Shown: piece after piece, positions 1,678 through 44,769 of the stretch
Layout of the letters: each line of letters starts with the position of its first letter
How positions within the stretch are numbered: position 1 is the stretch's first letter
From: Gloeothece verrucosa PCC 7822
GTDB lineage: Bacteria > Cyanobacteriota > Cyanobacteriia > Cyanobacteriales > Microcystaceae
Assembly: GCF_000147335.1 (NCBI RefSeq)
Contig: NC_014501.1
Span: 2,185,501-2,249,500, forward strand
Direction of reading: 5' to 3'
Length of the DNA stretch: 64,000 nucleotides
Translations under genes and position numbers: made by a program
Notes under the pieces: generated by a model
What the model saw: the letters and a program-made list of their open reading frames with translations, nothing else
Databases searched by the model: none
Told to the model about the DNA's origin: nothing

Positions 1678-3162
1678 TCAAAACCGACAAGAGCGGCGCT
1701 CATTTTCCAATTCCGGCTCTTGCCAAGAAAAGGAAAAATGACTAATGGCCTTAATTTGAGGAGCCGCCGCTTCAATAGCCCGCATTTGTTCTTCTAGAGA
1801 GGGACGTTTATCATAATCTCGTCCCCATAACCCGGCCAATGCAGGGACAATTTTTACCTGTCCAGAAGCCATACCCGTCACACGTTTAACCTGTTGAACA
1901 ATACAGCTAGGAGTTCCACAAACCCCATAAGACATGGGATGCCATTCGATCAAAGGGGGAAACTTATCCCAAGGTTGTAAGCGAGAATCAAACCCTTTTT
2001 GCCCAACTACTTGATTGCCATCCGGGAAAAATACCGCCCCGGCGACTATGCCTCGACGTTGTACCAAAGTCGCCGCCTGAGAGAGAAAATTAATCACCCC
2101 TTGGGCAGCATGAGCGACACTGAGATACCACAATTCATCTTTCAAGCGTTGAAAACGAGCATTAGCCGGTAGTTGCATTTCATTAGGGGGAGGGGTGCGC
2201 CCTTGCCAAAGCGGGGAACCTTCTTCAGGATACTGGTTATCCACCGTCACCAGATCATTAAGCGTAATATATCCTTGAGTCACATATCGCTCAATCAAGG
2301 CTCGTCCTTTATTATTGAGAGCGCGGTTATACAGGGCTTGTCGAGAGGCACTACCATAAATCCATAAATCTTTCACTTCCCCGGCAGCAGATTTATTGCC
2401 GGTCCCTCGAGGATAACGAACATAATCAAATAATACGCCGTCTGGTTCTCGTCTCAGCACAGCATTGAGTAATACCGTATAATCTTGTTGGGCTTGAGGA
2501 TGATAGGGATCAACAAATCCTTGAGACTGATCATGAACATAAGCAATACTGGTTTGTCCTGCCCCATTACGGGCTAATACATCCTGACGCTCTGGACGCT
2601 GAGCATAGACATAGCCAAAATTGAGGGTAAATAGCCAAGCATAGACTTTTAATCCCCGTTGATGTCCTTTTTTAATCGTTTCGGCTAATAAATCCACATT
2701 TTCCGCGCCTGGGGTTCTGACAATGGTATCCCATGAGGTAGGATTATCGTTAGGCGGCAGCAAAACTTGACTATCAGAAAACGTTTCGACATAAACCGTA
2801 TTGTAACCTCGATTGACAATGCGGTCTAAAATAGCGTCAATAGAACCTGCGCGAACATCACAAGGATATAATCTTAACCAAATTGCCTGTTGTTGGGGCC
2901 AAGTCTGGTTACGACAGCGACGTAATAATTCTGCATGTTTTCTGACTAGAGCATCGTAGTCTTTTTCGGCTTGTATATTTCCTTTTAAAGCAGTTTCCCG
3001 TAAATTCTCTTTGCTAGACGCTTCTTCTGGGGATAATTGACAGTAATAATTAGCCGCTTGACCCGGTAGAGGATATCCCGTCTCTACCATTAAACCACTC
3101 GCTGTCAGTAGTCCAGCCATTAGACTGCGGCAAACCCGATGACATAAAGCTGTTTTGTTCAC
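1678..3162 (-). CDS. Family 10-like (GHL10) glycoside hydrolase, exported
   Basis: A 494-residue protein that resembles the GHL10/DUF4015 group of putative glycosidases with a TIM-barrel fold. Residues 94-130 contain the first barrel strands (IWLRLYP, then NTVYVETFSD), and 241-252 hold DGVLFDYVRYPR, the characteristic strand that ends in a carboxylate/Arg cluster. The N-terminus is a weak signal peptide ending about residue 37. The start is GTG at 3162; an in-frame ATG at 3120 would remove part of the signal. The substrate is unknown, and a cell-wall or exopolysaccharide glycan is only a guess. It lies upstream of psb27 in reverse orientation but is separated from it by about 90 bp, so co-transcription is possible. 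Confidence 0.75.
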   Translation of the reverse strand: MNKTALCHRVCRSLMAGLLTASGLMVETGYPLPGQAANYYCQLSPEEASSKENLRETALKGNIQAEKDYDALVRKHAELLRRCRNQTWPQQQAIWLRLYPCDVRAGSIDAILDRIVNRGYNTVYVETFSDSQVLLPPNDNPTSWDTIVRTPGAENVDLLAETIKKGHQRGLKVYAWLFTLNFGYVYAQRPERQDVLARNGAGQTSIAYVHDQSQGFVDPYHPQAQQDYTVLLNAVLRREPDGVLFDYVRYPRGTGNKSAAGEVKDLWIYGSASRQALYNRALNNKGRALIERYVTQGYITLNDLVTVDNQYPEEGSPLWQGRTPPPNEMQLPANARFQRLKDELWYLSVAHAAQGVINFLSQAATLVQRRGIVAGAVFFPDGNQVVGQKGFDSRLQPWDKFPPLIEWHPMSYGVCGTPSCIVQQVKRVTGMASGQVKIVPALAGLWGRDYDKRPSLEEQMRAIEAAAPQIKAISHFSFSWQEPELENERRSCRF

Positions 3163-3253
3163 TGTTTTGCTTGAGTTTGCTTATCCTGTTCAACGATACA
3201 GCCCGCCATAAGCGGGCTTTGAGCAACAAAATCGATGGGCAAACACCAATGGC

Positions 3254-3658
3254 TTAGATGCCTTTTTCCAAAGCAAATTGGACTTGTTTAAATTCTTGTT
3301 TTAAACGATTTTTGAGCTTTTCGGGTAAAGGACGAGTACCGTAGCTAGTATAGTAGCCAGCTATCGCATTAAGAGCCGTTTGCATGGTGGTAAAAGAACG
3401 TAGTCCACCAGAGTTTTGATCGCGCCGATAACGAGAAATATAGTCATTAATTTCATCTCTGGCTTGAGATTGAATTTCTGCTTTGTTCTCCGCCTCTTTG
3501 GGCAGTTCGATCACCGCACTTAGAGTATCGATGAGTTTAAGAGTATCTTGAGTATAATTGCCACCCAGTCCTGTGGGGCTGCTAGAACACCCAACTAACC
3601 CAATAACCACCACCAGCATCAGCGCAAGTAACCGAGATAATAAAGATTTTATAGACAT
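3254..3658 (-). CDS. psb27: Photosystem II assembly lipoprotein Psb27
   Basis: A 134-residue lumenal lipoprotein that binds CP43 in PSII assembly and repair intermediates before the manganese cluster is made (known function of the family). The start is set at ATG 3658, which gives a type II signal peptide with lipobox LVGC and lipidated Cys24; a longer TTG-start frame to 3688 adds 10 residues that do not fit the family. The mature part has the family's four-helix sequence, including the IELPKEAENKAE and YTSYGTRPLPEKLK segments, and the total length equals the usual 130-135. It stands apart from other photosystem genes here. Confidence 0.93.
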   Translation of the reverse strand: MSIKSLLSRLLALMLVVVIGLVGCSSSPTGLGGNYTQDTLKLIDTLSAVIELPKEAENKAEIQSQARDEINDYISRYRRDQNSGGLRSFTTMQTALNAIAGYYTSYGTRPLPEKLKNRLKQEFKQVQFALEKGI

Positions 3659-4210: not shown

Positions 4211-4630
4211 TTAGACTCCACTAATGTGAACAACGATTTCTCGATAATGACTCCGGTCTCGATGTTCCCATAAATAAATTCCTTGCCAAGTTCCTAACAC
4301 TAACCTTCCCTGAGTAATCGGAATTTGTTGAGAAGTTTGCGTCAGCACTGAGCGAATATGGGCGGGCATATCATCAGGACCTTCTGCGTCATGAATATAA
4401 CTTTTTGAATCTTCTGGGACTAATTTACTAAAAAAGTTTGATAAGTCTCTTAAAACATCGGGATCGGCGTTTTCTTGAATCACTAAAGAGGCAGAAGTAT
4501 GACGGATAAATAGGGTACATAACCCCATATTTATGCCCGACTCAGCCACAATTGATTTAATTTTAGCGGTGATATCGTGAAAAGATTTACCCGTCGTTTG
4601 AATTTTAATGTTTTTTTGATGATGGTTCAT
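4211..4630 (-). CDS. YjbQ / UPF0047 family protein
   Basis: A 139-residue protein of the UPF0047 (YjbQ) family. Family members form trimers, and some show weak thiamine-phosphate synthase activity in vitro, so the physiological role is unsettled. Visible signatures are CTLFIRHTSASLVIQENADPDV, HIRSVLTQTS and LGTWQGIYLWEHRD, with the conserved His residues expected to bind a metal. The ATG at 4630 is preferred over the GTG immediately before it. Only 9 bp separate it from ridA downstream, suggesting an operon of small conserved metabolic proteins. Confidence 0.88.
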   Translation of the reverse strand: MNHHQKNIKIQTTGKSFHDITAKIKSIVAESGINMGLCTLFIRHTSASLVIQENADPDVLRDLSNFFSKLVPEDSKSYIHDAEGPDDMPAHIRSVLTQTSQQIPITQGRLVLGTWQGIYLWEHRDRSHYREIVVHISGV

Positions 4631-5771: not shown

Positions 5772-6848
5772 TCAAAGTAAATAATTTAGCACTTCGCCAG
5801 CAATCACTTCTGCCCCATTTTTAGCGAGGGTGTTTTCTAAACGAGCCGGCACTAAAGATTGCTGCAAAAACTCCCAAGAATCCCCAAAGAATTCGGCGGG
5901 TGTGATAATTTGATGCTGGCTATATTTTTTCAGTCCTTCTAACAAAAAAGGCGTTTCCCCAAAATCCTCTCGAGTTAAGGTAACGATGGGAACATTTAAA
6001 CGCAATGCTTCGGCAAAGGTACTATATCCGGGTTTACAAACCACTCGCCCACAAAGCGGCATAAAATCTACAGGGCGATAGCGATGATCAGTGATTTTAA
6101 TTATATTCGCTAATTCGGGAGCATGACGATCAAAGGTGATGAATTGCCAATCCGTAAATTTATCTAATTGTTGATAGGGGATTTGCTGTAATCCCAGTCC
6201 TCCAAAGGTTAATAAAACGGTTTTCGAAGGAGGAGATTTTAAATTAAAAATATTTCTTAATTCGGTCTCACTCAAACGGGGTGTTCCTCCCGTTAATCCG
6301 ACATCAGTGATACTAGAAAAAGCGCTCATCGGTTCGCACAAAGGGAAACGAAATAAGCGATCACATTTTTGATAACATTCACTAATCCACTGGGAAATTT
6401 CTTGAAACTCTTCTCCCCATTGTCCATAAATAAAATCCCAGCCAAAATTACTCATCATCCAGCAAGGAATACCAGCCGCTTGAGCAAGAGGAGCGGCTAA
6501 GGGCGGAATATCGGCTAAAATTAGCTGAACCCGGTTAGTTTTCAGAAAGTTTACTTCGGCGGCTATAATAGAATTCTGTTTTCGACGTATTTGCTCTATT
6601 TTTTCTTTTGTCGCTTTTTTATCCATTTGGATGCTATCAGCTTGTATAACTCCCACATCAAAAGCGCGAGAACGATAAATAAAATCCTCTCCTAGATAAG
6701 ATTCGATTAACCAATGCGGCGTAGTGGTAGCTAATATCAGTAAAATATCTGGACAAAGTTGTTTTAGCTGTGCTGCAACACAAGAAATCCGTACAGCATG
6801 ACCAAAACCATGATTAGTAACCATTAGATAAACAATAGGTCGAGACAT
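5772..6848 (-). CDS. GT-B fold glycosyltransferase-like protein
   Basis: A 358-residue protein resembling MurG/UGT-type GT-B proteins and the N-terminal region of L-arabinokinase-type proteins. Residues 9-19 (TNHGFGHAVRI) form the glycine-rich acceptor-side loop typical of the first Rossmann domain. In the C-terminal half, LLTFGGLGLQ and CKPGYSTFAEALRLNVPIV form the usual nucleotide-sugar binding region with its conserved Gly and Glu. No signal peptide or membrane helix is visible, so it is cytosolic or peripheral. Donor and acceptor are unknown. It is transcribed divergently from the binding protein at 7007, with about 160 bp between. Confidence 0.75.
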   Translation of the reverse strand: MSRPIVYLMVTNHGFGHAVRISCVAAQLKQLCPDILLILATTTPHWLIESYLGEDFIYRSRAFDVGVIQADSIQMDKKATKEKIEQIRRKQNSIIAAEVNFLKTNRVQLILADIPPLAAPLAQAAGIPCWMMSNFGWDFIYGQWGEEFQEISQWISECYQKCDRLFRFPLCEPMSAFSSITDVGLTGGTPRLSETELRNIFNLKSPPSKTVLLTFGGLGLQQIPYQQLDKFTDWQFITFDRHAPELANIIKITDHRYRPVDFMPLCGRVVCKPGYSTFAEALRLNVPIVTLTREDFGETPFLLEGLKKYSQHQIITPAEFFGDSWEFLQQSLVPARLENTLAKNGAEVIAGEVLNYLL

Positions 6849-38715: not shown

Positions 38716-39642
38716 TTACTGTGTAAATAAAGGGAGCGAGAGTTGTGATGCAGTTGTTTTCTGTTGTTTCGATTTCTTGCTTCCTCTTGCTGATTCCCAT
38801 TGTTCTATTAATCCATTAGCTAAATTATTAAGACGTTCTCTTGCTGGTTCTGTATCTCCAATTTCTGAGCCAATCCAATAACGCTGTAATTTTTCAGCCG
38901 CATAAAAAGTTGTCCCCGATCCGCCAAAAGGATCAATAATAATTTGCCCTGGATTAGATGCCATTGCAATAATACGCTCTAGCATAATTGGAGCAAGTTC
39001 ATTGGGCATTCTTTTTTTATGTTGTCGATGTCGGACGGGTGGAATATCAGCCCACATTTCTTCAGTTAGCGTCCATAAAATTTCATCAGCATCAGCTTCA
39101 GTCGCGTCTTCCCAAACATCTTCAGGCGCGTCCCAAACGTCCATCAAGTTAATGCCTTTCTCATTGAGTTTTTTTCGATGTCCTCCATAATCTCGAATTT
39201 CACCACCGCAATGTCGGCAAACTTGGATAGGTGTATAAATCTTATTAAAAACAGTAGGTTCTCCCTTGGTGTAGTAGAGTAGTCCATAGTGAGCAGGAGA
39301 CATTCTTTTTCCTCTAGGAAAGTTTTTGGGCATTCTACAGGCGATCCAATGCCTAAACCACATTCCTTGTCGATTAAGATATGCCCCGTATTCTATACAC
39401 CATCTAGGCAGATTAAATACAAATAAACTTCCACCGGATTTAAGCACTCGAATACTCTCATTAAGCCATTCCTGTGACCAAGAAATGTATTTATCGACTG
39501 CCATCTGATCGCTGACTCCCTCACCGTACTGCTTACCCAGATTAAAAGGCGGATCGGCAAATACCAGATCTACTGATTCGTCTGGTAATGCTGAGAGAAA
39601 TTTAAGGCAGTCTCCTTGATAAAGAATACCGTAGTCACTCAT
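38716..39642 (-). CDS. Site-specific DNA methyltransferase, beta class (N4-cytosine or N6-adenine)
   Basis: A protein of 308 residues with motif order DPPF (30-33) then DPFGGSGTT (238-246), the beta-class arrangement of N4C/N6A methyltransferases. An insert at about 142-145 carries CRHC, a possible half zinc site (HCGGEIRDYGGH follows). The ATG at 39642 has ACAGG upstream and starts right before the first catalytic region; a frame to 39705 adds 21 residues. It is convergent with the BglII-like nuclease gene. DPPF alone does not decide between N4-cytosine and N6-adenine. An HTH gene lies upstream on the same strand. Confidence 0.85.
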   Translation of the reverse strand: MSDYGILYQGDCLKFLSALPDESVDLVFADPPFNLGKQYGEGVSDQMAVDKYISWSQEWLNESIRVLKSGGSLFVFNLPRWCIEYGAYLNRQGMWFRHWIACRMPKNFPRGKRMSPAHYGLLYYTKGEPTVFNKIYTPIQVCRHCGGEIRDYGGHRKKLNEKGINLMDVWDAPEDVWEDATEADADEILWTLTEEMWADIPPVRHRQHKKRMPNELAPIMLERIIAMASNPGQIIIDPFGGSGTTFYAAEKLQRYWIGSEIGDTEPARERLNNLANGLIEQWESARGSKKSKQQKTTASQLSLPLFTQ

Positions 39643-39749
39643 GTAAACCTGTTCTAGTCCTTGTTGGGTAGCAACTGAGGTTGCGATCAGTTGAAATGGA
39701 AGCATTGAGTTAACTTTTAGTACGTTAGTATAGTTTGAGTCTACAAATT

Positions 39750-39998
39750 CTATTTACAGTTGTCAATAGAGTTTTTTTGAGAAGCTGTACTACGGGGTTG
39801 ATAAGGCTTACCAGTAGGTTGATTTTGATATTTTTTGATCTCTGTAGCCTCGATATAGTAGTAACGTCCAAGTTGACGAGCAACAATCTGACCATTTTTG
39901 ATTAAGTCGTGTACTCGCTGACGAGTTATACCCAGTAAGCTGGCCGCTTGAGTTACGGAAAATAGTTCAGAATTATCTTTGGAAGAAAAGTCTGTCAT
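39750..39998 (-). CDS. Excisionase-family helix-turn-helix protein
   Basis: An 82-residue DNA-binding protein with an HTH_17 (excisionase/MerR-like) motif: FSVTQAASLLGITRQRVHDLIKNGQIVARQLGRYYYIEATEIKKY. The C-terminal 20 residues are polar. Located 108 bp upstream of the methyltransferase on the same strand, it could act as a controller protein of the restriction-modification genes, though this family differs from classical C proteins. It could instead be a leftover of a mobile element that brought the RM block. Start is ATG. Confidence 0.75.
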   Translation of the reverse strand: MTDFSSKDNSELFSVTQAASLLGITRQRVHDLIKNGQIVARQLGRYYYIEATEIKKYQNQPTGKPYQPRSTASQKNSIDNCK

Positions 39999-40617: not shown

Positions 40618-42222
40618 CTAAATATCCCCATTAGCTAACATTTGAATCAACCTTGGTGTACCTGGATCAAACCCTCCTAAATCCCAAGAAAGGGGATCTT
40701 TTGGATCAACTAAAGTAATCCGGTAAGGTGCTAAAGTCACATACACCGCCTTAACATCAGGGTTGACTTTTTTGCGATATCGTGCTAATGCTTCTGTGGG
40801 ATGATGATAACCTGCCCAACTTTCGCTATCTGTCCAGAAACAAATAACATCCGCTTTAAAGCGCTCTTTGATCATCCAATCATAAGCAACAGAAGCATCC
40901 GTTCCCCCAAAGTTATTATCCCTAGCTTTACGAAGGGCAGAACTAAAACTATCTCGCCCAGTAATTCCCAAGTCTTTAAACTGGGTAGAAAACCCGCGAA
41001 TCATATAGTTTTTTTCCGCTTTGGCGGTTACCAGAGCCATCGCTGTCGCAATTTCGCAGCAGGTTAAACCCACAGAAGACACGACGCTGCCAGACATCGA
41101 ACCCGAAACGTCTACCGCGTGCATAAACACTTTACCCGTCGGTTCAGCCGCATCAAACGCCAACTCAACGGCCTTTTCTAAAATAGAGACAATACGCTCT
41201 ACCGGATTCCAGGTTTTTTGAGAGCGTCCTAATTTCCCCCCAGATTGATAGGTTTTTAAGGCTTTTAAGACATCTATCGGGTGAATCCGTCCCTTACGCA
41301 ACCGCTCTTTATTATTAAGAACCGATTCCACTCGATCTAAGTTAGCTCTTTCATCCCCTCGTAAAATGCCAATCTCGGTTAAAGACCCCAAATTCCGCAG
41401 CAATGCACCGATGGGCATTTCATTAAAGAGCAATTGCCAAGCGGCTTGATCCATTTTACCCACAGGGGCAGCCATTTCATGGGTTAAATGCCCTTGGGTG
41501 ATAGCTTCATGAGTCTTATCGGGATGCCGCTTAAGCCATTCATACCACCACACCTGAGCTAAAGCCGGTGAAGGAATTTCTTCGGGTAAGTCTTCCCATC
41601 CTTTAACCACCCATTGAAACAGTCGGTTATGGTCTTCGGTAGGTGGGTTAACATGAAACAGCCGCAAAGCATCACGATGAGAAAACCCTTGACGTTGTTG
41701 ATATTTCAGCAGTTGATAGGCTAACCCTTTCACGTCTTCTCGAGATAACCACTGTCTGCCGGCATCTCGAATTACCTTACCAAAGCCGCGCATCGATTTA
41801 GTATAAGCTAACCATTCGTAGAAGTGCGAACCCGTCCGAACTACTTGGGGAAAGACTTCACAAAAGGCTTTTTTCGCTTCGGCGGTTTTACCCATCGACA
41901 GCAAAACCAGAGCTAACAGAGGAGCGCTGTTATTGATAGCGCGTCCATCACTAGCATAAAGGATTTCTGAAGCTACCCGCGTCGGGTCAGTAAGAACAGC
42001 TTGTTGAACAACTTTAACAAAATCGTCGGTTAATTCGTGTTTATCGGCATAATAAGTGCTTTGGGCGGTTCCAATTAATAGACAACGCCGCAACATATTC
42101 CACAGGCCAGTATCAAACATCCATCCCCCGGAGCGGCCTTGGATCATTTCTTTTTCTCGGCCAGGGATAGGTTGAGATTGGGGTGTACCTGTTTTCTTTT
42201 TGTGATAAAATTTGTAATTCAT
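40618..42222 (-). CDS. TROVE domain protein, bacterial Ro60 (Rsr)
   Basis: A 534-residue orthologue of the Ro60 autoantigen. The N-terminal part (about 25-345) is the TROVE domain, a HEAT-repeat ring that binds Y RNAs and misfolded RNA. The C-terminal part is a von Willebrand A domain whose metal site starts DVSGSMSG at 371-378, with a Thr loop in NNFGGTDAS and FWTDSESW. ATG 42222 is preferred to TTG 42249 because GAGGAAAA precedes it. In Deinococcus, Ro60 works with Y RNA and polynucleotide phosphorylase in RNA decay. Three Y-RNA-like genes lie 80 bp upstream on the same strand, so RNA and protein may be produced together. Confidence 0.95.
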   Translation of the reverse strand: MNYKFYHKKKTGTPQSQPIPGREKEMIQGRSGGWMFDTGLWNMLRRCLLIGTAQSTYYADKHELTDDFVKVVQQAVLTDPTRVASEILYASDGRAINNSAPLLALVLLSMGKTAEAKKAFCEVFPQVVRTGSHFYEWLAYTKSMRGFGKVIRDAGRQWLSREDVKGLAYQLLKYQQRQGFSHRDALRLFHVNPPTEDHNRLFQWVVKGWEDLPEEIPSPALAQVWWYEWLKRHPDKTHEAITQGHLTHEMAAPVGKMDQAAWQLLFNEMPIGALLRNLGSLTEIGILRGDERANLDRVESVLNNKERLRKGRIHPIDVLKALKTYQSGGKLGRSQKTWNPVERIVSILEKAVELAFDAAEPTGKVFMHAVDVSGSMSGSVVSSVGLTCCEIATAMALVTAKAEKNYMIRGFSTQFKDLGITGRDSFSSALRKARDNNFGGTDASVAYDWMIKERFKADVICFWTDSESWAGYHHPTEALARYRKKVNPDVKAVYVTLAPYRITLVDPKDPLSWDLGGFDPGTPRLIQMLANGDI

Positions 42223-42302
42223 GCTATTTTCCTCGTCCCTGACGGGCAAAAAATCCCTTTTCAGTGGTCAGAATTGATCCCTGGTAACTGTTAAAAAAGG
42301 GA

Positions 42303-42432
42303 GGGCGAAGGCGGGATTTGAACCCGCGACACTCGTTTATGTAATCGATAACCCTCATTCTTCGGCCTAGTTAGGCAAGGGATAAATAAGGTAGCTCAAT
42401 TGCGATGCTCTACCAAACTGAGCTACTCCGCC
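42303..42432 (-). ncRNA. tRNA-shaped Y RNA, copy 1
   Basis: A 130-nt RNA gene 80 bp upstream of Ro60. Outer stem GGCGGAG/CTTCGCC (7 bp, one G-U) and T-arm GCGGG-TTCAAAT-CCCGC are tRNA-like. The D-region GCTC...GAGC could alternatively pair TAGCTCA with TGAGCTA to give a longer arm. No normal anticodon arm exists. At that place CTTATTTAT pairs with ATAAACGAG (one mismatch), leading to the hairpin at 42352-42381: CCC-CTT-GCC loop GGC-(CG)-AAG...GGG-type helix-bulge-helix with GGCCGAAG. That is the Ro60-binding pattern of Y RNAs (GNCGAA-N-G). A T6 run lies just downstream (42292-42297). It is only 25 nt after copy 2, so probably on the same transcript. Confidence 0.75.
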
Positions 42433-42457
42433 ATACAAACTGTTAAATAAATAGAGG

Positions 42458-42577
42458 TGGCAGGAGTGGGAGTCGAACCCACCTATATCCGATAATCAAT
42501 CGATAACCCTCATTCTTCGGCCGAGTTAGGCAAGGGGTGAACAAGGATGTAGTGTTTTACCGCTAAACTATCCTGCC
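42458..42577 (-). ncRNA. tRNA-shaped Y RNA, copy 2
   Basis: A 120-nt RNA gene. Outer stem GGCAGGA/TCCTGCC is perfect, D-arm GTTT-AGCGGTA-AAAC and T-arm GTGGG-TTCGACT-CCCAC are canonical. The anticodon position holds CTACATCC paired with GGATATAG (7 of 8), capped by the hairpin at 42507-42536 with CTT-GCC against GGC-CG-AAG, flanked by CCC/GGG. The two unpaired bases CG are where Y RNAs have their conserved bulge. A local alternative folds ATCGATTGATTATCG as a small stem-loop. It has its own TTGACA promoter at 42600-42628. A tRNA finder may call it a tRNA with an intron. Confidence 0.78.
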
Positions 42578-42599
42578 ATTCATTCGCTTTTGTATTACA

Positions 42600-42628
42600 A
42601 ATATATTACATAACGGGTAAGATGTCAA
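42600..42628 (-). promoter_or_regulatory. Promoter of Y RNA copies 2 and 1
   Basis: On the minus strand TTGACA (42628-42623), 17-nt spacer, TATATT (42605-42600). The -10 box is 23 bp from the first base of the mature-type acceptor stem, leaving a short 5' leader. The block around the -35 (ACTACAAAC then CTTGACATCTT) is shared with the promoter of copy 3. Confidence 0.75.
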
Positions 42629-42683
42629 GAGTTTGTAGTATGTAAAAAGAAGCTGAACATAAGTAACTGTTAAATAAAAAAGA

Positions 42684-42808
42684 GGGCGGGGACGGGATTC
42701 GAACCCGCGTTTCTCGCGTTGAAGGCGATAACCCTCATTCTTCGGCCTAATCAGGCAAGGGGTGAACAAGGATGTTTTAAGTGTTCTAGGCCGCTAAACT
42801 ACCCCGCC
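42684..42808 (-). ncRNA. tRNA-shaped Y RNA, copy 3
   Basis: A 125-nt RNA gene. Outer stem GGCGGGG/CCCCGCC is perfect; T-arm GCGGG-TTCGAAT-CCCGT has one G-U. The D-region can pair as GTTT/GAAC or, with a larger loop, GTTT/AAAC. The Ro-type hairpin is at 42732-42762, again with CTTGCC facing GGCCGAAG; its terminal loop differs (TGATTA instead of TAACTA/C), so bases GCCT/AGGC still pair. After the shared GGGTTATCG the segment TCGC-CTTCAAC-GCGA forms a 7-nt loop. A TCTTTTTTATTT run directly downstream may terminate it. Its own consensus promoter is at 42821-42848. Confidence 0.78.
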
Positions 42809-42820
42809 ATTCATATTACG

Positions 42821-42848
42821 ATCATAATACATAAACCGAAGATGTCAA
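42821..42848 (-). promoter_or_regulatory. Promoter of Y RNA copy 3
   Basis: On the minus strand TTGACA (42848-42843), 16-nt spacer, TATGAT (42826-42821). The -10 box ends 12 bp before the first base of the acceptor stem. The -35 neighbourhood is nearly identical to that of the copy 2 promoter. Confidence 0.78.
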
Positions 42849-42873: not shown

Positions 42874-43368
42874 TCAATGAGACAGAGGCACAGAACTAAC
42901 GATAATCCCATCTAAATCTGCATAAAGCCATTCCCCAGGAGTAAAGGTCACCTCAGCAAAACGGACGGCAATATTTTTATCGCCTAACCCTCGTTTTAAG
43001 CTTTTGAGGGGGTAAGTATTGAGTGCTTTAACTCCCAAAGGAAGCTTGGCAATTTCGGCAGCATCTCGAATGGCCCCATAAATTACCAGTCCTGACCATC
43101 GATTTTTAACCGCGATAGCGCCCAGTTGATCCCCCAAAAGGGCACAACGGAGGGAACCCCCGCCATCTATGACTAAAATACGACCCTCTCCGGGTTCGCC
43201 AAGCATCTCGCGGACTAAAGTATTATCTTCAAAAATCTTGAGCGTAGAAATTACGCCGCTAAACTGTGTATTACCGCCGTAGTCTCGAAACAGGGGGGCA
43301 ACAATACGCAGCTTACCCTGATTAAATAGTGCTTCATTGGCATCCAATAGATCAGTAGTATTTAGCAT
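42874..43368 (-). CDS. rraA: RraA family protein
   Basis: A 164-residue protein of the RraA family (formerly MenG). E. coli RraA binds and inhibits RNase E; other relatives are 4-hydroxy-4-methyl-2-oxoglutarate aldolases, and both share the fold. Visible conserved stretches are [39 protein letters not shown] and [15 protein letters not shown]. The Arg-Asp pair after GAI, used with a metal in the aldolases, is kept, so enzymatic activity cannot be excluded. It lies directly upstream of the Y RNA genes on the same strand; the Y RNA promoter begins right after its start of 3' flank. Confidence 0.88.
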
Positions 43369-43407
43369 GATGTTCAGGAGAGGGGAAAACAGATGGTTTT
43401 TTCGCGA

Positions 43408-44769
43408 TTAAACCCAAATATCTGAGGTAACATCACCTCCAGGATACCGTATTTCATGAGCGCGGGCAGGACCGTTGGGTTCTTGGCCAAAATCAACGCA
43501 GAAATTTTCATTAATTTCCATGCCGCCATTTTCTGAATCACAGTCAATCAGAAAAAGAGTAGAACCGGACGATGCTAAATCCGGATAAAATTGGTTATCC
43601 CAGCTACTAAACAAAGAGTCAGTGACATACAAGCGTTTACCATCTAAACTCAACTGTAACATCTGAGGCCCCCCGGCAATTTTACGCCCTTTAATGGTTT
43701 CTCCTCGACCCAATAACCCGCCACACCAGACTTGTGCAGTTAATTTTGGATGTTTCGGATCGCTGATATCGTATTGACAAATATTGCCATGTAGCCAGTT
43801 AGAAAAATAGAGATATTTATCATTCAAAGAAATCAGTAAATCGGTAATCAAAGAAGGTACCGGTATCGGCCATCCTTCAACATTTACTGAAGGAATATCA
43901 ATAATTTTTTCCACTGTCCAATGACCATTATTTTTCCACCAATGCCAAATATTACTACTTAAAGCCGCGCCCACAAAACCCTCGGTACTATCGGGGTTAT
44001 GATGAAAACGAACTTCTAGAGGAATTAAACCTTCTTCTCCGAGATCTACACTTTGCAAAATCGAATGAGTTGACCAGTCCCAAAAATGAAGTTTTCTGCC
44101 ATAATTACCGGCTTTGACATCTTCAAGATCAAACCCAGGATAATAAGTTTTAGGAGCGCCCCATTCACTACTGACCATGATATTATGACGCGGCTGATAC
44201 CAAAAGTCATAGTTAAAACTCATTCCCTCAGCATTTTTTTCCCAGTGTCCAACAAGATCAAAGTTTTCATCCAGCAACAAAAAACCCCCAGGTCCGTTAC
44301 CAACGCTATCTCCTAACATAGAAATCATGACTGTACCATTAGCTAAACAATGGACGGTGTGAGGGGCGCTTAAATTCGTTTTGGCTTTGATTTCTTCGGG
44401 TTCGATAATTTTATGAATTTTTGGAGCGCGTTGCTCTTGGGTATCAATAATATAAATGCGCGTCGAACGTTGACCCGGAATAATTAAAAAACGTCTCGAT
44501 TTACTCGCATCTCCATGACAAGAACTACAAGCATTCCAGCCAAAATGATGTAATTCATCACCTATATAAGGCATCTGAAGACGATGAATCACTTGGGAAT
44601 AAGTCGGCGAGTTGGGATCGACATCTATCGTCGCTAAATAATCGGGTGCTTCTATGGATGTTCCTGTATAGAGAGCCACTGTATAAATAATTTTTTCTCG
44701 GTCTGCTTTCATAGCGGCTTCTACAGAAGCATAACCCGGTCCACAGCAGGAGTGATGGTCTTGACTCAT
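43408..44769 (-). CDS. Selenium-binding protein / methanethiol oxidase family
   Basis: A 453-residue SBP56 family protein. The family forms a beta-propeller; human SELENBP1 and bacterial MtoX oxidise methanethiol to formaldehyde, hydrogen peroxide and sulfide with a metal centre. Landmarks: HHSCCGPGYASVEAAMKADREKI at the start, HHFGWNACSSCHGD (containing the Cys that binds selenium in family members), LSAPHTVHCLANG, and the C-terminal PNGPARAHEIRYPGGDVTSDIWV. No signal peptide, unlike MtoX, so it is probably cytosolic. It lies 40 bp upstream of rraA on the same strand. Confidence 0.92.
   Translation of the reverse strand: MSQDHHSCCGPGYASVEAAMKADREKIIYTVALYTGTSIEAPDYLATIDVDPNSPTYSQVIHRLQMPYIGDELHHFGWNACSSCHGDASKSRRFLIIPGQRSTRIYIIDTQEQRAPKIHKIIEPEEIKAKTNLSAPHTVHCLANGTVMISMLGDSVGNGPGGFLLLDENFDLVGHWEKNAEGMSFNYDFWYQPRHNIMVSSEWGAPKTYYPGFDLEDVKAGNYGRKLHFWDWSTHSILQSVDLGEEGLIPLEVRFHHNPDSTEGFVGAALSSNIWHWWKNNGHWTVEKIIDIPSVNVEGWPIPVPSLITDLLISLNDKYLYFSNWLHGNICQYDISDPKHPKLTAQVWCGGLLGRGETIKGRKIAGGPQMLQLSLDGKRLYVTDSLFSSWDNQFYPDLASSGSTLFLIDCDSENGGMEINENFCVDFGQEPNGPARAHEIRYPGGDVTSDIWV

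What the first reader, a model, noticed from the sequence alone, without database searches (positions are those of the whole stretch)
42303..42808. Three tRNA-shaped Y RNAs next to Ro60: a candidate undescribed Y RNA topology
Seen: three loci (42303-42432, 42458-42577, 42684-42808) on the same strand as and directly upstream of a TROVE/Ro60 gene. Each has a complete 7-bp acceptor stem and tRNA T-arm, and where the anticodon would be it carries the same hairpin with GGCCGAAG. Known: bacterial Y RNAs are usually encoded beside Ro60, carry the motif GNCGAA-N-G, and some (YrlA) contain a tRNA-like domain. Inferred: here the RNA's two ends make the tRNA acceptor stem while the Ro-binding stem is a closed hairpin at the far end, so relative to usual Y RNAs, whose ends form the Ro-binding stem, the order of parts is permuted. 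I do not know of a description of this layout.
Basis: partly seen in the sequence, partly recalled or inferred. Interest (0 to 1): 0.92.

Follow-up and report, generated by a model that had tools for sequence, protein, structure and literature searches.

The report
tRNA-shaped Y RNAs beside Ro60
Beside the gene for the RNA-quality-control protein Ro60, cyanobacteria carry small RNA genes that look like tRNAs with a probable Ro60-docking hairpin built into the anticodon arm, which is the layout of the known bacterial Y RNA cut at a different point of the same circle.

Summary
Three tRNA-shaped loci lie directly upstream of a TROVE/Ro60 gene, each with the same Y hairpin. A covariance model built without them finds just these three in the window (95-117 bits). 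They belong to a cyanobacterial family: 187 distinct copies upstream of 78 of 81 Ro60 genes. Each of the seven helices, the split anticodon stem included, has pairs with two-sided changes. In 292 genomes of the phylum, all 23 with a match of 70 bits or more have Ro60. The layout is a circular permutation of YrlA: there the Y stem holds the RNA ends and the acceptor is capped; here the acceptor holds the ends and the Y stem is capped. One relative's Ro60 locus (L148) appears to carry both forms. Splicing to a working tRNA is disfavoured, not excluded. Best reading: Ro60-docking tRNA mimics, a new topological variant of bacterial Y RNA. Binding, processing and expression are untested, and the main 2014 survey of bacterial Y RNAs was not held.

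The parts
42685..42808 (-). Y-tRNA copy 3 (first in the transcription direction): 7-bp acceptor, D arm, Y hairpin in 5' strand of anticodon stem, 7-nt anticodon loop CUUCAAC, T arm
   Evidence: R2 116.5 bits with the window left out of training
42731..42773 (-). Y (probable Ro60-docking) hairpin of copy 3, cap GAUU; GGCCGAAG at 42747-42740, UUAUCG at 42731-42726
   Evidence: covariation
42459..42577 (-). Y-tRNA copy 2; 8-bp acceptor possible (T-1:A73); loop UUGAUUA
   Evidence: RF00005 42.0 bits; R2 108.2 bits
42506..42548 (-). Y hairpin of copy 2
42304..42432 (-). Y-tRNA copy 1 (nearest Ro60); anticodon arm degenerate
   Evidence: RF00005 45.3 bits; R2 94.8 bits
42351..42393 (-). Y hairpin of copy 1
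40618..42249 (-). Ro60/Rsr protein, 543 aa
   Evidence: PF25045, PF05731; D. radiodurans Rsr 2nvo E 9e-76 and Ro60 1yvp E 3e-67
42821..42848 (-). sigma-70-like promoter TTGACA-16-TATGAT before copy 3
   Evidence: consensus match 11 of 12; not proof of function
42600..42628 (-). sigma-70-like promoter TTGACA-17-TATATT before copies 2 and 1
   Evidence: consensus match 11 of 12

Best explanation
These are bacterial Y RNAs in a circularly permuted, tRNA-ordered form. Each is transcribed just upstream of, and probably partly together with, Ro60 (inferred from gene order and promoter-like sites). It folds as a tRNA with acceptor, D and T arms (supported by covariation). Its anticodon stem is interrupted by a capped hairpin that carries both strands of the Y RNA Ro60-docking site (sequence and covariation). 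[quoted passage not shown] Several copies per genome with different tRNA bodies would give one Ro60 several adaptors (inferred). Use in translational or RNA-damage stress is suggested by published induction of a cyanobacterial TROVE gene by erythromycin.
For: 187 distinct copies upstream of 78 of 81 Ro60 loci; a model recovers one more locus, L091. RNAalifold with no structure given finds acceptor, D, T and Y stems, 21 of 28 pairs with two-sided changes. With the anticodon stem, 24 of 33 pairs (shuffles 15.3 on average) and 177 cells (shuffles 48), 0 of 500 shuffles as high. Of 292 genomes, 23 have an R1 match of 70 bits or more and all 23 have Ro60; none of the 263 without Ro60 over cut-off has one. 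Short canonical Y RNAs just upstream of Ro60 in L150 carry GGGCCGGAG..UGGGUUAUC first and (U)UUUGCCC last, the same two strands in the opposite order. L148 seems to hold both permutations. Erythromycin strongly raised a TROVE gene in Chlorogloeopsis PCC 9212 (PMC6424891, one passage).
Against: No expression, binding or processing data. The anticodon loops that most copies keep are not needed for Ro60 docking and are not explained by this reading. The window copies lack the GNRA cap and two of three lack the eighth acceptor pair. The L148 examples of both orders fold no better than shuffles (89 and 67 of 200 as good) and its genome is flagged 7% contaminated. At least one tRNA-like body without Y hairpin lies in such an array (L096:744-817). 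I did not show that the erythromycin-induced gene is the orthologue with Y-tRNAs.
Confidence: 0.8

Rival explanations
1. The Y hairpin is an intron: it is cut out and the halves are joined to give working tRNAs, the excised hairpin perhaps serving as a mini Y RNA.
For: 137 of 187 copies allow a perfect 5-bp anticodon stem and 7-nt loop after removal of the insert, against 44% of 1843 swapped halves; in 276 close pairs U33 never differs.
Against: The breakpoint shifts between 28/29 and 29/30 (my reading), other copies seem to have the hairpin in the anticodon loop or D loop, and type D would need two excisions (inference). Position 34 is A in 28 of 137, though 23 of these are one AGG group; in 30 own-genome loci of 45 ordinary tRNA matches, ARAGORN reports A34 only for Arg-ACG, besides one odd four-base call. 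Copy 3 would read UGA. 173 of 187 allow an eighth acceptor pair. Pairs around the insert are equally expected in an unspliced three-way junction.
Confidence: 0.08
2. They are stress baits: the tRNA body with a varied anticodon loop attracts anticodon nucleases or tRNA-binding factors and hands them or the damage products to Ro60.
For: In 276 close (not independent) pairs U33 is constant while nt 34 and 32 differ in 0.37 and 0.45, above every region average (at most 0.17); YrlA was proposed as competitive inhibitor of an anticodon nuclease (PMC7790460 passages); Ro60 beside or inside ordinary tRNA arrays in two relatives.
Against: The Rfam YrlA model shows no anticodon arm; some copies, window copy 1 included, lost the loop; no nuclease identified.
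Confidence: 0.1
3. Dead tRNA genes hit by a spreading Y cassette, without function.
For: Varied tRNA bodies, several insert positions, imperfect anticodon arms in window copies 1 and 2; a tRNA gene split by an unrelated insert exists in a cyanobacterium without Ro60 (L144).
Against: Two-sided changes in every helix, link to Ro60, spread over Nostoc, Crocosphaera, Pseudanabaena and PCC 7002.
Confidence: 0.02

Closest known systems
YrlA, bacterial Y RNA with tRNA-like domain (Rfam RF02553; PDB 6CU1)
   Same: Encoded beside Ro60; Y stem strands; D arm, T arm and acceptor; the ARTEMIS paper notes a circularly permuted match of 6CU1 to tRNAs (PMC11472068 passages).
   Different: YrlA starts and ends in the Y stem, T arm precedes D arm, acceptor is capped. 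Here acceptor ends are free, D precedes T, Y stem is capped, and an anticodon arm is usually present.
tRNA (RF00005)
   Same: Cloverleaf, D and T loops, acceptor; two of three copies pass the Rfam gathering score.
   Different: Y hairpin of about 43 nt in the anticodon stem; eighth acceptor pair possible in 173 of 187 homologues; anticodons such as UCA and AGG.
Nematode stem-bulge RNA / animal Y RNA
   Same: GGGUUAUC after the upper stem; UUAUC is conserved in sbRNAs and vertebrate Y RNAs (PMC4450293, PMC4726728 passages).
   Different: No tRNA module, RNA ends at the lower stem. Window copies do not match RF01656; Y RNAs of the relative G041 do at 37.4 and 31.3 bits (cut-off 38).
D. radiodurans Y RNA / RYPER
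   Same: Ro60 plus Y RNA; Y RNA tethers Rsr to PNPase (passages).
   Different: Different topology; PNPase link not tested here.

Membership tests
Bacterial Y RNA (functional class) | Gene beside a Ro60 orthologue | tested here: met
   Window; 78 of 81 loci; 23 of 23 genomes with strong hits
Bacterial Y RNA (functional class) | GNCGAANG strand opposite a CUUG-type strand in an interrupted stem | tested here: inconclusive
   GNCGAAN with CUUGCC opposite in all three, 7 of 8 letters; last G is A. Motif taken from the finding, not from a call
Bacterial Y RNA (functional class) | Binds Ro60 | not testable with these tools
   -
YrlA (RF02553) | RNA ends form the Ro60-binding stem | tested here: not met
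   Ends form the acceptor stem, 7 of 7 pairs with two-sided changes
YrlA (RF02553) | T arm 5' of D arm, acceptor capped | tested here: not met
   D precedes T; YrlA order seen alignment
YrlA (RF02553) | Rfam gathering score 69 | tested here: not met
   Only a match across the copy 2/copy 1 junction, 32.2 bits
tRNA | Rfam gathering score 29 | tested here: inconclusive
   2 of 3 copies pass
tRNA | Continuous anticodon arm, callable tRNA | tested here: not met
   ARAGORN finds none; arm interrupted
tRNA | Aminoacylated and decoding | not testable with these tools
   -
Nematode sbRNA (RF01656) | Rfam gathering score 38 | tested here: not met
   Window copies no hit; relative L150 37.4 and 31.3 bits

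The most novel reading that the evidence does not exclude
Cyanobacteria use a previously undescribed class of Y RNAs that are whole tRNAs with a Ro60-docking hairpin in the anticodon stem. Canonical YrlA and this class are two cuts of one circle, interchangeable through tandem arrays, so YrlA's tRNA mimicry descends from real tRNAs in Ro60-linked tRNA arrays. The shared GGGUUAUC core suggests bacterial and animal Y RNAs may be homologous.
Probability: 0.4. Interest if true: 0.92.

Novelty: new variant of a known kind. Interest (0 to 1): 0.82.

Why it matters
It would be a natural circular permutation of a functional RNA, apparently with both forms at one locus, and a concrete route for how bacterial Y RNAs came to mimic tRNA. 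It also names culturable cyanobacteria (for example PCC 7002) in which Ro60 function and tRNA mimicry can be tested. If the UUAUC core is homologous, it bears on the origin of animal Y RNAs, which a review calls not homologous with bacterial ones (PMC4726728 passage).

Tried and rejected
YrlA junction hits as proof of permutation: the window junction scores 32.2 bits, L083 40.5, L085 37.9, L096 31.7 and 27.3, L036 28.9, L046 27.5. Ordinary tandem tRNAs in L148 score 24.6-28.2; two ordinary pairs in L010 and L015 gave no hit at E 0.5. Most junction hits are thus not decisive, and the canonical readings in L151 (26.4, 25.5 bits) rest on the eye.

Phage or plasmid origin: an exact pattern scan of viral contigs found 0; the one Gordonia phage stretch I read has a canonical-order YrlA pair; four Picosynechococcus plasmids carry the Ro60, and in the two fetched permuted Y-tRNAs are upstream. 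Antiphage class: no PADLOC hit for Ro60. Invariance of UUAUCG is not claimed, since my parsers asked for it; the register choice also rewards U33 (122 of 137 have it). Insert-type counts (131 A, 16 D, 29 other, 11 unclassified of 187) come from a rough rule. My body scan needed TTC or TGC in the T loop and so missed L096:744-817.

On re-check I found that two 164-nt R1 matches in genomes without Ro60 (G109 54.0, G145 51.9 bits) were unexplained; G109 (L144) is a tRNA split by an insert without Y core, G145 was not read.

Literature: nine full-text searches showed no title or abstract on cyanobacterial or tRNA-ordered Y RNAs. I saw listings only, cut (20 of 36; 10 of 1,005; 10 of 11). Four papers on bacterial Y RNAs were asked for and not held, so prior description is not excluded.

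Full report
WHAT IS THERE. On the minus strand, three tRNA-shaped loci (42808-42685, 42577-42459, 42432-42304) precede the Ro60 ORF 42249-40618. The protein matches D. radiodurans Rsr (2nvo, E 9e-76) and Ro60 of 1yvp (E 3e-67) along most of its length. Each locus has acceptor, D arm and T arm, and between D and T a hairpin with CCUU..CUUGCC on one side and GGCCGAAGAAUGAGGGUUAUCG on the other. The bodies differ more than the hairpin. Two TTGACA promoter-like sites lie before copy 3 and copy 2 (4 sites found on both strands, 1.4 expected); no terminator-like site was found.

FAMILY. A scan of named genomes with the Ro60 protein gave 80 cyanobacterial loci (109 relatives found, best 80 kept). 75 of 80 carry the motif within 5 substitutions, none on the other strand. 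A search for tRNA-like bodies upstream of Ro60 that did not ask for the hairpin, but asked for a TTC or TGC T loop, found 200 places in 81 loci (window included). 193 are flagged with the Y hairpin; of the other seven, one is a shortened Y form and six look spurious. It missed one tRNA-like body without Y hairpin, L096:744-817 (RF00005 51.2 bits; read). Without duplicates 187 Y copies remain in 78 loci. Of the three loci without, L091 has one at 110.6 bits, L080 only weak matches (26 and 20 bits), L072 none. The 78 loci hold 1 to 5 copies; the last copy ends a median 35 bases before the Ro60 match, under 300 in 73 of 78.

STRUCTURE. From 122 of 187 copies whose parse gave an anticodon arm I took 37 under 88% identity, the window copies kept in any case. 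RNAalifold, given no structure, returned acceptor, D, T and a two-part Y stem; 21 of 28 pairs show two-sided changes. With the anticodon stem added, 24 of 33 pairs do, with 177 such cells against 48 in shuffles (0 of 500), and 96% of cells paired against at most 51% when slid. The two pairs that close the anticodon stem across the insert show two-sided changes (90.5% of cells paired); the three pairs next to the anticodon loop are weaker (82.9%). So the hairpin branches from the 5' strand of the anticodon stem. In 137 of 187 copies removal of the insert leaves a perfect 5-bp stem, versus 44% for swapped halves. In 276 close pairs of 110 parsed copies U33 never differs, while nt 34 differs in 37% and nt 32 in 45%; these pairs are not independent. 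An eighth acceptor pair (-1:73) is possible in 173 of 187, shuffles reaching at most 131, and in 9 of 30 ordinary tRNAs of the own genome; in the window only copy 2 has it. 84 of 187 have CCA one or two bases after the 7-bp acceptor strand; 0 of 30 ordinary ones have it after the discriminator. 153 of 187 cap the Y stem with a GNRA tetraloop by my pattern; the window copies do not.

PERMUTATION. The Rfam YrlA alignment shows its order: Y 5' strand, T arm, acceptor, D arm, Y 3' strand. The window order is acceptor 5' strand, D arm, Y 3' strand, cap, Y 5' strand, T arm, acceptor 3' strand: the same circle cut elsewhere. RNAs in the other order exist beside Ro60 elsewhere. L148 (genome G044, same phylum, 95% complete, 7% contaminated) has a YrlA match at 4420-4521 (38.4 bits), which I read as having an acceptor CGGGCCC-GCAA-GGGUACCCG, and permuted copies at 2299-2419 (70.4 bits) and probably 3131-3256 (40.8 bits). 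Folding gives no support for the first two beyond shuffles. L151 seems to have canonical copies (26.4 and 25.5 bits, no better than ordinary junctions), one with a CUUAUAA loop between Y strand and T arm. A Gordonia phage has a canonical tandem pair (one at 42.2 bits). L150 has two 66-nt stem-bulge Y RNAs with UGGGUUAUC just upstream of Ro60, which fold far better than shuffles (0 of 200) and match the nematode sbRNA family RF01656 at 37.4 and 31.3 bits, cut-off 38. A minority of cyanobacterial copies show a further arrangement in which the partner strand of the upper Y stem lies downstream (type D, for example L036:3345-3466, folded), and a few seem to carry the hairpin in the anticodon loop or D loop.

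DISTRIBUTION. Over 292 genomes of the phylum, 23 have R1 matches of 70 bits or more; the best 71-nt, ordinary-tRNA-sized matches have 55.3 bits. All 23 have PF25045; 29 genomes have it over cut-off, and 1 of 14 control genomes rings below it. Of the 24 Ro60 genomes in the same class, 22 have a strong match, G078 a weaker one beside Ro60 (52.9 bits). G127, with a more divergent Ro60 inside an ordinary tRNA array, has none. The remaining five Ro60 genomes are outside the class; of these only G044 has a strong match. Two matches of 164 nt at 54.0 and 51.9 bits lie in genomes without Ro60; the one I read (L144) is a tRNA split by an insert without Y core. R1 included the window copies; R2 did not and still finds them. 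R1 also finds three in the laboratory strain PCC 7002, not used in training (96.3, 60.5 and 47.2 bits; the last is in the range of ordinary tRNAs). In the own genome R1 finds only these three above 52 bits, besides 45 ordinary tRNA matches.

HOW IT WORKS. Supported: structure, order, link to Ro60. Inferred: Ro60 docks on the capped hairpin; the tRNA body is the effector module and is processed as tRNA. From passages of reviews: YrlA's tRNA-like domain is a substrate of tRNA-modifying enzymes and Y RNA tethers Rsr to PNPase (PMC8394870; PMC4726728). A stress role is suggested by strong induction of a TROVE gene by erythromycin in Chlorogloeopsis PCC 9212 (PMC6424891, one passage); PCC 6912 of the same genus (L032) has Y-tRNAs upstream of Ro60. 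That an 8-bp acceptor stem hinders normal translation is recalled knowledge of selenocysteine tRNA, not tested.

NOVELTY. The class is known (bacterial Y RNAs with tRNA-like parts). The tRNA-ordered topology did not appear in the listings of nine searches of the open library, but the 2014 survey and the 2018 and 2020 papers were not held. I rate it a new variant of a known kind.

Noticed in passing
L150:6031-6096 and 6171-6236 (-): Two stem-bulge RNAs upstream of a bacterial Ro60 resemble the nematode sbRNA family RF01656 (37.4 and 31.3 bits, cut-off 38), with UGGGUUAUC; the genome is flagged 7% contaminated. Possible homology of bacterial and animal Y RNAs.
   Followed up: partly
L148:776-4817 and L151:2372-6982: Ro60 lies beside or inside long ordinary tRNA arrays (25 and 17 ARAGORN genes) in two relatives.
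   Followed up: partly
L036:3345-3466, L098:1035-1154, L155:3343-3465: Third arrangement (type D): lower and upper Y stems are separate hairpins and an anticodon-like loop seems to cap the upper stem.
   Followed up: partly
L096 at -866 and L083 at -424 from Ro60: Y hairpin apparently in the D loop of a tRNA body.
   Followed up: no
L096:744-817: tRNA-like body without Y hairpin and with an unusual T loop in a Y-tRNA array.
   Followed up: partly
L144:1501-1665: A tRNA body split by an insert of about 95 nt with repeated pieces and no Y core, in a genome without Ro60.
   Followed up: partly
G000:C1:3140865-3140970 (-): A 106-nt R1 match of 43.5 bits in the own genome that is not in the tRNA list.
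   Followed up: no
L049:5661-5767, L057:5620-5766: Further Y-tRNA-like matches just downstream of Ro60 in some Nostoc (48.0 and 51.8 bits).
   Followed up: no
window 38716-39705 and 39750-39998: N4/N6 DNA methyltransferase with a small HTH_17 protein downstream of Ro60; I did not look for a restriction partner.
   Followed up: no
window 42874-44769: RraA-like protein and a selenium-binding protein SBP56 gene directly upstream of the RNA array.
   Followed up: no
L015:1425-1498: ARAGORN reports an own-genome tRNA with a four-base anticodon (atgc), next to a tRNA read as Arg-gcg.
   Followed up: no
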